A stretch of DNA of 47,645 bases from an uncultured Campylobacterales bacterium (GTDB lineage Bacteria; Campylobacterota; Campylobacteria; Campylobacterales; Sulfurimonadaceae). Location of the stretch: positions 1 to 47,645 of the forward strand of contig CAISHH010000125.1 in NCBI GenBank assembly GCA_903885085.1. The letters are read 5' to 3'. This document shows, piece by piece, positions 4,197-47,645 of the stretch (positions are counted from its first letter, which is position 1; every line of letters begins with the position of its first letter). The notes under the pieces are model-generated. The model did not search any database. It saw nothing but the letters and a program-made list of their open reading frames with translations, and had not been told where the DNA came from. A program made the position numbers and the translations under genes.

Positions 4197-4930
4197 TCAA
4201 GAAGTTTGTATTCGATATTTTTTGACTCTAGAAAAGTTTTAAATTTTTCAAACTCATTTTTGACAATTTCTTCATCATAATAGTTTAAAGAAAGTTCCAC
4301 TTCTGGGCCATTCTTTCCTATAATAGGTAAAGAAGAAAGCTCCATATCTGATGGAATCTCATTCATAAGATCTATCAAAGTGTTTTCGCTCGTATAAGCA
4401 AAAAGTGTCTTTCTGTACTTTTTCACAGAGTTGCAAAAGTATTTTTCGACACACTCAGTTATCATGGGATGAGACATCTCAGGGAATCCTGGAACAAAAA
4501 AGTATCTATGATCTAACTCAAATGCAGACATATTATTGATAGGATTTTTTATGAGATTGGCATTTTCTGGTAGGTCTGACATAAATATACGGTGAGGATA
4601 CGCTTCCGCCCCAAATCTTTCTATGATATCTTTTTCAAACTTTTTATTTCTTACTAAAGGTTTACATGTAAAGACCTCGGCGGCTATTTCACGAGTAAGA
4701 TCATCAGGAGTTGAGCCTATACCGCCAAAGCTAAAAAGTACCGCTTTTTCATCTTTTTTTACCAACTCAAAAATATCTGTCATAAAATTTTTCTCATCTT
4801 TTATGATAAAGGTCGCAAAAAGATTATGTCCGTAAGAGTTTAAAAGATCACGAACAAATCTGAAATGCTTATCTTCCCTTCTTCCATTGAGTATCTCTGT
4901 ACCTATAATAACCGCATAAAAATTAAACAT
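4193..4930 (-). CDS. CinA-like / MoCF molybdopterin-binding domain protein
   Basis: IIGTEILNGRREDKH, SFGGIGSTPDDLTREIAAE, FFVPGFPEM motifs. Confidence 0.85.
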   Translation of the reverse strand: MFNFYAVIIGTEILNGRREDKHFRFVRDLLNSYGHNLFATFIIKDEKNFMTDIFELVKKDEKAVLFSFGGIGSTPDDLTREIAAEVFTCKPLVRNKKFEKDIIERFGAEAYPHRIFMSDLPENANLIKNPINNMSAFELDHRYFFVPGFPEMSHPMITECVEKYFCNSVKKYRKTLFAYTSENTLIDLMNEIPSDMELSSLPIIGKNGPEVELSLNYYDEEIVKNEFEKFKTFLESKNIEYKLLD

Positions 4931-5049
4931 ATTAAAAATCCTTGATAGCTTTTAAAAACGAGTGATTATAATGAGAATCTTGTTATATATGCCTTACATG
5001 TAACCAACTATTTGGTATTATTTTACCTATAATAATTGAAGGATAGAAA

Positions 5050-5322
5050 ATGTTATTTTCACAAAAACTCGAAGAGATGATAAAACAAAGTGTGTTGCCA
5101 GATATCGAAGATAGAATGGATGAGCTTTATGAAGTTATCGCAGATAAAAAAAATGAGTCTATTGAAGAAGCGAAAGAGGAACTTGAAGAACTTATTGAGT
5201 TTCGTGATGATTTAAAAGAGATTCTTGTTGATATCGAATGTGGCGAGATTGAAGAAGATGAATGTGAAGAGATCTTGAATGACATCATATCAGCGCAAAC
5301 AGAAGAAGATGACGAAGAGTAG
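5050..5322 (+). CDS. Small, very acidic conserved-type hypothetical protein
   Basis: 90-aa ORF with RBS-like upstream sequence, just upstream of adk; no domain recognised. Confidence 0.6.
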   Translation: MLFSQKLEEMIKQSVLPDIEDRMDELYEVIADKKNESIEEAKEELEELIEFRDDLKEILVDIECGEIEEDECEEILNDIISAQTEEDDEE

Positions 5323-5374
5323 ATTAAACTCATTTGTATATAATTTTAACAACAAAACAGATAGGACTTAAAAT

Positions 5375-6022
5375 ATGAGAATTATACTACTTGGCGCTCC
5401 GGGTGCAGGAAAAGGCACTCAAGCCCAATTTTTGACTAAAAAATACAATATCCCCCAAATCTCAACTGGAGATATGCTTCGTGCGGCGATCAAAGCCGGC
5501 ACAGAGATGGGAAAAATGGCAAAAGCAGCTATGGACGCTGGACAGCTTGTAACAGATGAGATCATCATCGGACTTGTGAAAGACCGTATAGCTGAAGATG
5601 ACTGTAAAAACGGCTACTTACTTGATGGTTTTCCTCGTACGCTTCCTCAGGCTGACGCTGTTACAAATGCGGGTATCGCAATTGACGCCGTCATCGAGAT
5701 AGATGTTCCAGATTCTGAGATCGTAAGCAGAATGAGCGGTCGTCGTGCGCACTTGGCAAGTGGAAGAACTTATCATTTAGTTTACAATCCACCAAAAGTA
5801 GAAGGTAAAGATGATGAAACTGGCGAAGATCTTGTTCAGCGTGATGATGATAAAGAATCGGTAGTAATAGACAGACTAAAAGTTTATCACGAACTCACAA
5901 GTCCACTTATCGGTTACTATAAAGAGCAGGCATCTAAAAACTCTAGTATCAAATACATTACTGTCGATGGTACAGCTCATATCGATGAAGTTGAAACGGC
6001 TATCGTTTCTGGACTTCAGTAA
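5375..6022 (+). CDS. adk: Adenylate kinase (long LID form)
   Basis: [15 protein letters not shown]-loop, [50 protein letters not shown]. Confidence 0.95.
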
Positions 6023-6034
6023 ATAGAGTTATAT

Positions 6035-6061
6035 GTAACCCTTTTGGGTTACGCAAAAGGG
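6035..6061 (+). promoter_or_regulatory. Two mutually exclusive hairpins overlapping the RBS of the 6068 ORF
   Basis: Hairpin A GTAACCC(6035-6041)/GGGTTAC(6046-6052); hairpin B CCCTTTTG(6039-6046)/CAAAAGGG(6054-6061); both perfect. Confidence 0.5.
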
Positions 6062-6067
6062 GATATT

Positions 6068-45341: not shown

Positions 45342-45361
45342 AACAGACTCCTAAATAAACT

Positions 45362-45423
45362 GAATATTCATTCATTTTGGAAAATTATAGTATATTTCTG
45401 TAAAATATAGATTAATATTTTAC
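45362..45423. promoter_or_regulatory. Candidate operator in the divergent hyp / protease promoter region
   Basis: Perfect 9-bp inverted repeat GTAAAATAT (45400-45408)/ATATTTTAC (45415-45423); TGAATATTCA palindrome 45361-45370. Confidence 0.4.
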
Positions 45424-45493
45424 ATTTTCATCAATATAACTAAAATTAATACACAAAACTCCTCATTTGAGCAGGTTCTTAAGGAAAATAAAA

Positions 45494-46057
45494 ATGAATA
45501 AAACAAAAATTGTAGTGTTGGGTGTTGGAAATATTTTAGAAAAAGATGATGGTATTGCGGTTTATGCAACATCTTATTTGGAAAACAATTATCATTTTGA
45601 GCCTACTATCGAGATCATTAATGGCGGAGTTGAAGGAATTAATTTACTCAATCTCTTTATGGAAAACGAACATATTCTTATCTTAGATGCCATCAATCTT
45701 GATGATGAGGTGGGAAGTATCTATCATATACCCTCACATGAACTCAGTGGATATGGAATAAATACAGGCGGTGCGCATGAAGTGGGTGTGATGCAATGTC
45801 TTGATATGCTCGAACTCCTCAATAAACCCCTGCCAAAATCAAGTGTCTTGGGAATAGTGCCAAAAACAGTAGAAGTTGGCATCGGTCTCACACAAGAGAT
45901 GGAAAATATCTTTTCTACTTATATTGATACTATTATCAAAATCTTGGAAAAAGAGAATATTCTTGTCAAAAAGAGAGAAAACCTCCTTGATCTCGAAACT
46001 ATTATTGAACTTTTTAAAAATCCCCAAATAAATACCCGAGAGTACATTAAAAATTGA
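45494..46057 (+). CDS. HyaD/HybD-family hydrogenase maturation endopeptidase
   Basis: VLGVGNILEKDDGIAVYA; ILILDAIN; GGAHEVGV; start trimmed to MNKTK. Confidence 0.9.
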   Translation: MNKTKIVVLGVGNILEKDDGIAVYATSYLENNYHFEPTIEIINGGVEGINLLNLFMENEHILILDAINLDDEVGSIYHIPSHELSGYGINTGGAHEVGVMQCLDMLELLNKPLPKSSVLGIVPKTVEVGIGLTQEMENIFSTYIDTIIKILEKENILVKKRENLLDLETIIELFKNPQINTREYIKN

Positions 46058-46085
46058 TTTTTTAATGTACGAGGCTAAAAGCCTC
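46042..46085. terminator. Tandem hairpins between convergent genes
   Basis: GTACATTAAAAA (46042-46053)/TTTTTAATGTAC (46059-46070) and GAGGCT (46071-46076)/AGCCTC (46080-46085). Confidence 0.75.
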
Positions 46086-46632
46086 TATTATGCTCGATAC
46101 TCGGATTGGCATAAGTATGTAAAATTTCTTCTAAAGAGAAACTATCTTTACTTTTTGTAACTTCAACCCCACTCTTTTCTAAAACATCTATAATAGTTTT
46201 GATATATTCACTCCAAACTGACCGCAAGATGTCTGTAAGCCCTACTTCCACAGAGATGATATCCTCAGGCGTAATGGAGATAAGTGTCGTATTTGCCATA
46301 TGATTTGCCATCGAACATATCTGAAGCATTTCGGCAATTTCTACCTCATTTGCTGTTTTTTTGATAAGTGTTCCATCTAAAAACTCATTACAGCTTTTAA
46401 TTGTGATAGTTCCAGCTTTTATTTCATCATCTGAAGCAGTATTTACGATGATAACCTCAAGAAATTCTTGAAGTAAAGGCATCAGAAAAAATCCTAGCGT
46501 GCCACCATCTACAAACTCTATTTCAGGGCTAAAATTATAATTTTCTTTTAAATACTTTACCGCATAAAGACCAACGCCCTCATCTTTAAAAAATGCATTT
46601 CCAGAACCTATAAGGGCTAATTTTTTATTCAT
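46075..46632 (-). CDS. HyaD/HybD-like paralogue, catalytic-site variant
   Basis: ALIGSGNAFFKDEGVGLYA; position homologous to Ni-binding Asp is Asn (IIVNTAS) and His is Asn (TANEVEI). Confidence 0.8.
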   Translation of the reverse strand: MNKKLALIGSGNAFFKDEGVGLYAVKYLKENYNFSPEIEFVDGGTLGFFLMPLLQEFLEVIIVNTASDDEIKAGTITIKSCNEFLDGTLIKKTANEVEIAEMLQICSMANHMANTTLISITPEDIISVEVGLTDILRSVWSEYIKTIIDVLEKSGVEVTKSKDSFSLEEILHTYANPSIEHNRGF

Positions 46633-47645
46633 ATTTCTCTCCATTTTTTAATGCATAGTAAATCTGTCCAAGAGCGATAGAGCCATCATTGACAGGTGTT
46701 GCTTTTTGTATATAGTAGCGCAATTTTCTTTGTTGGAACTCTTTGGTGAGAAGAGTAACAAGGCTTTTATTTTGAAAAACACCGCCGCTGAGAACGATAG
46801 GCAGTAAAGGATATTTTTGCGCTATCTCCAAGACGATATTTACAAGAGTGATTATAAATCTTGAACAAACCTCCTCTTTTTGCCTTACATGCGCAGTGCC
46901 CTGAGGGTGTAAGAGCTCTTGTATCATAGAACTGATATCAATCTCGCCGTTTTGAAGAGAATAGGTAAATCCTTTTTCGCTATCGATTTTTGTTGCAAAA
47001 GATTCGACAAGCAGACCGCTTTCTCCCTCGTAGCCCACTATTTGCTTTATGCCACAAAGTGAAGCCACTGCGTCAAAAACTCTTCCAACTGAGCTTGTAA
47101 AAGGTGAGTTTAATCCCTTTTTCCACATTACATGTAAAGCTTTTATCTCTTCTTCTGTGAAGCTTTTGACCGTTTCATTTTCTTGTGTCAAAATCTCTTC
47201 AAGTCCATAAATATCAAACAACAGCGAGAGTGCTATGCGTCTTGGTTCTTTGACCGCTTTCTCTCCTCCAAGTAGACGAAATGGTTTGATATGGTGCACT
47301 CGCTCAAACTCTTTACAATCTGCTAAAAGTACTTCTCCTCCCCAAAGTGTATGGTCATCTCCATAGCCCGTTCCATCAAAACAAAAAGCCAATACTTTTT
47401 CATCCAAATTATACTCAGCCATACACGCGAGTGCGTGAGCATAGTGATGCTGTACCTCTAAAATCTGGATCTTTGGATTTTCTTTGACCATCTGCTTTGC
47501 CCATTTGGTTGTCTCATACTGGGGATGTTTATCACATACGATGATTTCAGGCTCAAACTCATAAAACTCTCTAAAGGTTTGAAGCGTTCTTGTAAAATAT
47601 TCAAAAGCCTCCAAAGAGTTTAAGTCGCCGATATGAGGTGATAAA
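46625..47645 (-). CDS. hypF: Carbamoyltransferase HypF, C-terminal part (5' end beyond window)
   Basis: QHHYAHALACMAEYNL, FDGTGYGDDHTLWGGE, VLSGGVFQNKSL, ATPVNDGSIALGQ; frame stays open (SPHIGDLNSLEAFEYF) to window end. Confidence 0.93.
   Translation of the reverse strand, partial: LSPHIGDLNSLEAFEYFTRTLQTFREFYEFEPEIIVCDKHPQYETTKWAKQMVKENPKIQILEVQHHYAHALACMAEYNLDEKVLAFCFDGTGYGDDHTLWGGEVLLADCKEFERVHHIKPFRLLGGEKAVKEPRRIALSLLFDIYGLEEILTQENETVKSFTEEEIKALHVMWKKGLNSPFTSSVGRVFDAVASLCGIKQIVGYEGESGLLVESFATKIDSEKGFTYSLQNGEIDISSMIQELLHPQGTAHVRQKEEVCSRFIITLVNIVLEIAQKYPLLPIVLSGGVFQNKSLVTLLTKEFQQRKLRYYIQKATPVNDGSIALGQIYYALKNGEKYE

What the first reader, a model, noticed from the sequence alone, without database searches (positions are those of the whole stretch)
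4662..47137. Highly over-represented dispersed palindrome TTACATGTAA
By eye I count 11 exact copies (starts 4662, 4994, 7109, 11937, 17715, 20886, 23931, 31024, 31998, 33844, 47128). The 8-bp core TACATGTA adds 9 more (7257, 17893, 22345, 26622, 29438, 40782, 42163 or 42164, 42209, 45048), about 20 in all. At roughly 35% GC (my estimate) about 0.2 copies of the 10-mer and under 2 of the core are expected. Most copies lie inside unrelated genes and read as Leu-His-Val (LHV) or Thr-Cys-Lys (TCK), so the constraint looks to be on DNA rather than protein. Flanks are often Y..R, and one copy (33842-33855) extends to a 14-bp palindrome. This resembles the cyanobacterial HIP1 phenomenon, uptake sequences, or the target of a methylase or nucleoid protein. 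I know of no described role for it in this group.
Basis: partly seen in the sequence, partly recalled or inferred. Interest (0 to 1): 0.8.

Follow-up and report, generated by a model that had tools for sequence, protein, structure and literature searches.

The report
Genome-wide repeated palindrome marking own DNA
A ten-letter DNA palindrome is scattered about 485 times through this bacterium's genome and is kept letter-perfect over evolution even inside unrelated genes, so it is probably a label the cell uses to recognise its own kind's DNA; related genera use different labels.

Summary
TTACATGTAA occurs 11 times in the window (expected 0.08) and its core TACATGTA 20 times (expected 0.9). The whole genome has 485 copies against 2 of the reversed control. 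Among 299 genomes of the order, only two of 23 families are rich: the window's family, in scattered genera, and Sulfurospirillaceae, with up to 1496 copies. A 54% GC genus has 1061.

The constraint is on DNA. With encoded amino acids unchanged, sites are kept in 59/59, 14/15 and 8/8 cases (background 0.70, 0.31, 0.28). One same-genus species has lost nearly all sites. Sites are enriched between genes, form inverted-pair hairpins there, and are about threefold sparser in strain-specific DNA. Sister genera carry other iterated palindromes, e.g. AGCGCGCT (1152 vs 2 control).

An orphan adenine methyltransferase related by annotation to HpyIM (CATG) accompanies the motif (28/33 genomes with it are rich, 9/39 without), with exceptions both ways.

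Best reading: a self-DNA signal of the DNA-uptake-sequence type, possibly methyl-marked like RAATTY in Campylobacter jejuni. Function is inferred; no receptor or methylation was shown. HIP1 is the nearest analogue in form. I found no prior description in the literature searched.

The parts
4662..4671 (.). TTACATGTAA, in 4193-4930(-), reads FTCK
4994..5003 (.). TTACATGTAA, intergenic
7109..7118 (.). TTACATGTAA, in 7041-7616(-), reads LHV
7257..7264 (.). core TACATGTA, in 7041-7616(-), reads VHV
11937..11946 (.). TTACATGTAA, in 11860-12264(-), reads LHV
17715..17724 (.). TTACATGTAA in the Tex-family gene 16140-18245(+), LHV; conserved in G007 (90% id) and G001 (78% id)
17893..17900 (.). core TACATGTA in the Tex-family gene, LHV; conserved in G007 and G001
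20886..20895 (.). TTACATGTAA, intergenic; conserved in G007, lost in G001
22345..22352 (.). core TACATGTA in 21795-23018(+), LHV; conserved in G007 and G001
23931..23940 (.). TTACATGTAA in 23780-24352(+), ITCK; conserved in G007 and G001
26622..26629 (.). core TACATGTA in 26450-26908(+), LHV; conserved in G007, G001 and G006
29438..29445 (.). core TACATGTA in 29152-30132(+), LHV; conserved in G001, one mismatch in G007
31024..31033 (.). TTACATGTAA in 30943-31461(+), LHV; conserved in G001, not in G007
31998..32007 (.). TTACATGTAA in the GMC oxidoreductase gene 31454-33127(+), LTCK; conserved in G007 and G001
33844..33853 (.). TTACATGTAA, centre of a 14-bp palindrome 33842-33855, in 33820-34488(+), LHV; conserved in G007
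40782..40789 (.). core TACATGTA in 39726-41423(-), VHV
42164..42171 (.). core TACATGTA in 41436-42434(-), LTCS
42209..42216 (.). core TACATGTA in 41436-42434(-), GTCN
45048..45055 (.). core TACATGTA in 44700-45341(-), IHV
47128..47137 (.). TTACATGTAA in 46625-47614(-), LHV

Best explanation
TTACATGTAA (core TACATGTA, extended C-TTACATGTAA-G, with T-rich stretches a few bases further out on each side) is a species-group DNA signal that marks the cell's own kind of DNA. I think it most likely acts as a DNA uptake sequence: a surface or periplasmic competence protein prefers DNA carrying it. Fragments that hold the signal are then taken up and recombined more often, which spreads, repairs and keeps the sites (molecular drive plus selection). 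An orphan adenine methyltransferase of the CATG type probably modifies the central CATG in many of these genomes, so the label may be the methylated palindrome, as methylated RAATTY is in Campylobacter jejuni. SHOWN: the iteration, the DNA-level conservation, the intergenic enrichment and inverted-pair hairpins, the depletion in strain-specific DNA, the lineage-specific alternative palindromes, the decay in some lineages, the statistical link with the methyltransferase. INFERRED: recognition by the uptake machinery, methylation of the motif, the mechanism of spread.
For: Genome-wide abundance: 485 vs 2 control, up to 1496 in relatives, 1061 in a genus sampled at 54% GC. Conservation with amino acids held constant: 59/59, 14/15, 8/8 against backgrounds of 0.70, 0.31, 0.28; 69/69 aligned 10-mers identical between two Sulfurospirillaceae genomes at 93.3% identity. 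Intergenic density 1.03 vs 0.24 per kb in the window's genus and 2.1 vs 0.27 per kb in G220. Inverted pairs a few bp apart after stop codons that fold as perfect hairpins, z -3.3 to -7.1, as described for DUS (PMC3630211). About threefold depletion in strain-specific DNA (0.46 vs 0.16 per kb, P=0.0008) and of the 10-mer on two S. diekertiae plasmids (4 vs about 17 expected each). Other genera carry other iterated palindromes: AGCGCGCT 1152 vs 2 in G020, CGATCG in G018, CATCGATG in G023, like DUS dialects. Sites lost almost wholly in G003 (1/45 kept vs 19% of all 8-mers), and about half of those still there and examined are intergenic, some in hairpin pairs. ComEC is in all genomes tested, motif-rich ones included, and a pilin cluster lies by priA/comEC, the position of the C. 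jejuni uptake protein Cj0683 (PMC10046745). Orphan methyltransferase: 28/33 genomes with it have at least 90 motif copies, 9/39 without.
Against: Classical DUS and USS are not palindromic. No receptor was found, and the pilins near priA are present and similar in motif-poor genomes too (G003 74% identical to G006). ComEC is equally present in motif-poor genomes, so it does not discriminate. The methyltransferase is missing from some motif-rich genomes (G002, G004, G005, G156, G122, G146, G210, G267) and intact in some motif-poor ones (G003, G010, G025, G228, G314); the association is not corrected for phylogeny. Two plasmids are rich in the 8-bp core (13-14 copies each). Sites are spaced at random, not evenly. 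In the G006/G003 comparison, unaligned DNA is not depleted. Transformation has not, to my knowledge, been tested in these genera.
Confidence: 0.5

Rival explanations
1. A HIP1-type element whose abundance comes from, or serves, an orphan DNA methyltransferase inside the cell (for example methyl-directed repair or strand marking), with no role in uptake.
For: Palindromic, iterated at a density approaching HIP1, alternative palindromes in sister genera, and an orphan adenine methyltransferase of the HpyIM/NlaIII type that tracks the motif. The methyltransferase sits at conserved places beside tsaD, recO or xseA without a restriction enzyme, and is a pseudogene in three genomes of the motif-poor genus g45. 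Core CATG positions tolerate mismatch least.
Against: The published repair model for HIP needs a G-meC dinucleotide (PMC4390886); TTACATGTAA has no GC and the enzyme is an adenine methyltransferase. Eight motif-rich genomes lack the enzyme and several motif-poor ones have it. ACATGT in other flanks is near expectation. The T-rich flanks further out and the hairpin pairs are not explained by methylation alone.
Confidence: 0.27
2. Binding site of an abundant dimeric chromosome-organising or global regulatory protein.
For: Perfect dyad, graded flanks and A/T tracts suggest a dimer that bends DNA; strong site-by-site conservation.
Against: Density is the same in two G006 segments about 1 Mb apart (49 and 51 cores per 200 kb), so no sign of an origin/terminus gradient; most sites are inside genes; near-total loss in a close relative with an 80% identical syntenic genome; different palindromes in sister genera would need repeated replacement of both protein and hundreds of sites.
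Confidence: 0.15
3. Restriction-site bookkeeping: over-representation as a by-product of a restriction-modification system.
For: The core contains CATG and a CATG-type methyltransferase is present in many of the genomes.
Against: Restriction causes avoidance, not accumulation; no endonuclease gene was recognised beside the methyltransferase at its conserved positions; other ACATGT contexts are neither strongly enriched nor depleted.
Confidence: 0.03
4. A chance or protein-level effect (composition, a common LHV/TCK peptide).
For: Most coding copies read LHV or TCK.
Against: 485 vs 2 reversed control; conserved beyond synonymous background; both frames and intergenic DNA used; where the motif is absent in G003 the amino acids often differ, 22 of 37 sites against about a third expected.
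Confidence: 0.01

Closest known systems
HIP1 (GCGATCGC) and alternate HIPs of cyanobacteria (Elhai 2015, PMC4390886)
   Same: Short perfect palindrome iterated hundreds to thousands of times, inside and outside genes; different palindromes in related lineages; orphan methyltransferase associated; inner positions least variable
   Different: AT-rich decamer in Campylobacterota; associated enzyme is an adenine (D12) methyltransferase; no GC dinucleotide; T-rich outer flanks; inverted pairs forming hairpins after genes
DNA uptake sequences (DUS dialects) of Neisseriaceae (PMC3630211) and USS of Pasteurellaceae
   Same: Iterated 10-bp signal, lineage dialects, intergenic enrichment, inverted pairs as hairpins near gene ends, sparse in foreign DNA, graded tolerance of outer positions
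   Different: Palindromic; no receptor of ComP type identified; uptake bias untested
Methylated RAATTY / CtsM uptake discrimination of Campylobacter jejuni (described in PMC10046745)
   Same: Same order, palindromic motif with central adenine, orphan N6-adenine methyltransferase, competence apparatus with pilin upstream of priA
   Different: Motif is longer and hugely over-represented; methyltransferase is of the HpyIM type and not strictly linked; methylation and uptake untested

Membership tests
HIP (highly iterated palindrome) | Perfect palindrome iterated genome-wide far above Markov expectation | tested here: met
HIP (highly iterated palindrome) | Cognate orphan methyltransferase present when the palindrome is frequent | tested here: inconclusive
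   Strong association (28/33 vs 9/39) but exceptions both ways; cognate specificity inferred from annotation only
HIP (highly iterated palindrome) | GC-rich, with GC dinucleotide as required by the G-meC repair model | tested here: not met
   TTACATGTAA has no GC; PMC4390886
DNA uptake sequence (DUS/USS) | Hundreds of copies, enriched in own core DNA, sparse in foreign DNA | tested here: met
   plasmids depleted of the 10-mer but not of the core; the G006/G003 comparison showed no depletion
DNA uptake sequence (DUS/USS) | Intergenic enrichment and inverted pairs able to form hairpins near gene ends | tested here: met
DNA uptake sequence (DUS/USS) | Lineage-specific dialects | tested here: met
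   unrelated palindromes rather than one- or two-base variants
DNA uptake sequence (DUS/USS) | Non-palindromic signal read by a single receptor (ComP in Neisseria) | tested here: not met
   The motif is a perfect palindrome; no receptor identified
DNA uptake sequence (DUS/USS) | Raises uptake or transformation efficiency | not testable with these tools
   Needs transformation assays
RAATTY/CtsM-type methylated uptake signal | Motif methylated by an orphan N6-adenine methyltransferase required for uptake | not testable with these tools
   Orphan D12 methyltransferase found; methylation unmeasured; CtsM homology not tested
HpyIM-type (CATG) D12 methyltransferase | Sequence membership in that subfamily | tested here: inconclusive
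   Pfam MethyltransfD12; PADLOC type II methyltransferase; phage relatives 37-48% identical annotated 'ulcer associated adenine specific DNA methyltransferase', which I take to be the hpyIM name; hpyIM recognises CATG (PMC4450513); no direct comparison with hpyIM possible

The most novel reading that the evidence does not exclude
Campylobacterota hold a family of methyl-marked, palindromic self-DNA signals that switch sequence between genera (TTACATGTAA, AGCGCGCT, CGATCG-based, CATCGATG), linking HIP-type palindromes, DUS dialects and methylation-dependent uptake in one system in which each lineage's orphan methyltransferase and DNA receptor define its own label.
Probability: 0.3. Interest if true: 0.9.

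Novelty: new variant of a known kind. Interest (0 to 1): 0.77.

Why it matters
HIP1 has no agreed function, and uptake sequences were thought confined to two families of Proteobacteria (my knowledge). Here a third, independent group has an equally strong signal, natural gains and losses among close relatives, different palindromes in sister genera, a candidate methyltransferase, and culturable hosts (Sulfurospirillum). That makes the question of what maintains an iterated genomic palindrome, and whether it is a self-DNA label, open to direct test. It would also give a way to transform organohalide-respiring Sulfurospirillum and to tell foreign from native DNA in these genomes.

Tried and rejected
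Literature: no paper held under CC licences describes TTACATGTAA or TACATGTA in bacteria as an iterated motif, and searches on Sulfurospirillum/Campylobacterales palindromes or uptake signals found none. Restriction avoidance: ACATGT outside T..A flanks is near expectation. Vsr-like C-to-T correction: the C4T variant is, if anything, in excess (10 vs 2.8). Methyltransferase as sole cause: exceptions both ways. ComEC loss as the cause of motif loss: ComEC is universal. Pilin near priA as the discriminating receptor: present and similar in motif-poor genomes; nearest solved structures are generic type IV pilins. Even spacing, as expected for a strand-marking grid: not seen. Replacement motif in G003: none of comparable strength in 200 kb. 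No PDB relative of the methyltransferase by sequence.
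Full report
THE OBSERVATION. TTACATGTAA occurs at exactly the 11 stated places and TACATGTA at 20; shuffles expect 0.08 and 0.91. TACATGTA and TTACATGTAA are among the most over-represented 8- and 10-mers of the window under low-order Markov models. Eighteen sites are in open reading frames and two between genes. 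The genome (2.34 Mb, 172 contigs) has 485 copies against 2 for the reversed pattern.

DISTRIBUTION. Seven same-genus genomes have 48 to 756 copies; in the family g3, g5 and g6 are rich (305-1061) while most genera have 0-10. Over 299 genomes of the order, only the window's family (f1) and f20 are rich; no genome of the other 21 families exceeds 9. f20 is Sulfurospirillaceae: G055 carries a 39,868-bp second contig equal in length to plasmid pSDCE1 of S. diekertiae ACSDCE, and named motif-rich contigs are mostly Sulfurospirillum. The window's family has no name in my data; its nearest named matches include metagenome bins labelled Sulfurimonas. G012, at 54% GC in the 20 kb sampled, still has 1061 copies of this AT-rich word.

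ANATOMY. Pooled over 0.81 Mb of motif-rich DNA there are 244 decamers against 0.64 expected. Single mismatches are common only at the outermost positions (T1C 68-fold, T1G 26-fold, T2G 10-fold); changes in the central A, C, A are near background. Of the 16 flank combinations around ACATGT only T..A is strongly enriched (340 vs 6). Outward of the core come A, A/G, G and then T-rich positions about 5-9, also at coding sites. This looks like a dimer-type recognition site with flanking A/T tracts.

CONSTRAINT IS ON DNA. Between two Sulfurospirillaceae genomes at 93.3% identity, 69 of 69 aligned decamers are identical (59% of all 10-mers). Holding the encoded amino acids constant, cores are kept 59/59 (background 0.70), 14/15 (0.31, G006-G002) and 8/8 (0.28, window-G001). 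In the window's own region 8 of 10 cores persist in G001 at 78% identity, where 17% of all 8-mers do.

LOSS. G003, same genus and syntenic with G006 at 80% identity, keeps 1 of 45 aligned sites, fewer than the 19% of ordinary 8-mers. It has 48 copies left. Of those I examined about half are intergenic, several as inverted pairs just after stop codons, that is, sites with a second use as hairpins. Amino acids at G006 sites differ from G003 in 22 of 37 cases, against roughly a third expected, which suggests that the motif distorts proteins where it is kept.

PLACEMENT. Intergenic density exceeds coding density about fourfold in the window's genus and eightfold in G220. Close inverted pairs fold as perfect hairpins. 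Strain-specific DNA has about a third of the density of shared DNA in the G220/G199 comparison; the G006/G003 comparison showed no such depletion. Two S. diekertiae plasmids carry 4 decamers each against about 17 expected, but 13-14 cores, so the signal is not absent from mobile DNA. Spacing is otherwise random, and two G006 segments about 1 Mb apart have equal density.

DIALECTS. Motif-poor genera of the same family carry other iterated palindromes. AGCGCGCT is present 1152 times in G020 (2 in control, 0-91 in the other genomes searched). CGATCG is found 31 times against 1.4 expected in 36 kb of G018, and CATCGATG 19 against 1.6 in 33 kb of G023.

METHYLTRANSFERASE. A 330-aa D12 adenine methyltransferase without a recognised neighbouring endonuclease lies beside tsaD in the window's genus, recO in g3/g6, and xseA in g5. 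Phage relatives are annotated 'ulcer associated adenine specific DNA methyltransferase', which I take to be the name of H. pylori hpyIM; hpyIM recognises CATG (PMC4450513). In 72 genomes of the two families, 28 of 33 with a full-length gene have at least 90 motif copies, against 9 of 39 without; at 700 or more copies it is 16 vs 1. Three genomes of the motif-poor genus g45 have the gene broken by stops. Exceptions run both ways, and the test ignores shared ancestry, so the gene is a correlate, not a proven cause.

COMPETENCE. ComEC is in every genome tested, which permits but does not prove uptake. A run of type IV pilin-like genes precedes priA, and comEC follows, in many of these genomes, matching the place of the C. 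jejuni uptake protein Cj0683 upstream of priA (PMC10046745). C. jejuni takes up only DNA methylated at the palindrome RAATTY by the methylase CtsM (same paper). The pilins do not separate motif-rich from motif-poor genomes.

JUDGEMENT. The pattern (iteration, DNA-level conservation, intergenic inverted pairs, scarcity in accessory DNA, genus-specific alternatives, decay in some lineages) matches what is known of DNA uptake sequences, except that the motif is palindromic, like HIP1 and like RAATTY. The HIP repair model needs G-meC (PMC4390886) and cannot produce this sequence. I put uptake/self-recognition at 0.5, a HIP-like intracellular role of methylation at about 0.27, and a chromosome-binding protein at 0.15. 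I found no earlier description in the held literature; subscription journals are mostly absent from it.

Noticed in passing
G020 (same family); L131, L142, L361: AGCGCGCT occurs 1152 times in a 3.0 Mb genome against 2 for the reversed control: a second genome-wide iterated palindrome in a sister genus.
   Followed up: partly
G018 (L130, L140, L238, L261, L304) and G023 (L134, L362): CGATCG (31 vs 1.4 expected, often as CGATCGCA, HIP1-like) and CATCGATG (19 vs 1.6) are strongly over-represented in about 35 kb of each genome; genome-wide counts not made.
   Followed up: partly
L396 (pSDCE1) 1918-2468 and 20494-21362; L397 (pSDIE1) 7062-7605 and 28123-28804: TACATGTA is clustered around the methyltransferase gene and around the S24/LexA-like regulator gene on both S. 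diekertiae plasmids, mostly without the full T..A flanks.
   Followed up: no
G006:C1:2076683-2077669 and G003:C1:2079023-2080024: The orphan methyltransferase sits at the same place beside tsaD in both genomes but the proteins are only 56% identical while neighbouring DNA is about 80% identical, as if alleles had been replaced.
   Followed up: no
G000:C76 and G000:C153: The window's own genome has two copies of the orphan methyltransferase family, one beside tsaD and one elsewhere.
   Followed up: no
G071, G302, G320 (f20, genus g45): The methyltransferase has in-frame stops in these motif-poor genomes (7-15 copies).
   Followed up: no
L198-L207 (G006), L208-L217 (G003): AAAGAG/CTCTTTTA is strongly over-represented in both (109-111 vs 25-30 expected for CTCTTTTA); not palindromic, unexplained.
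   Followed up: no
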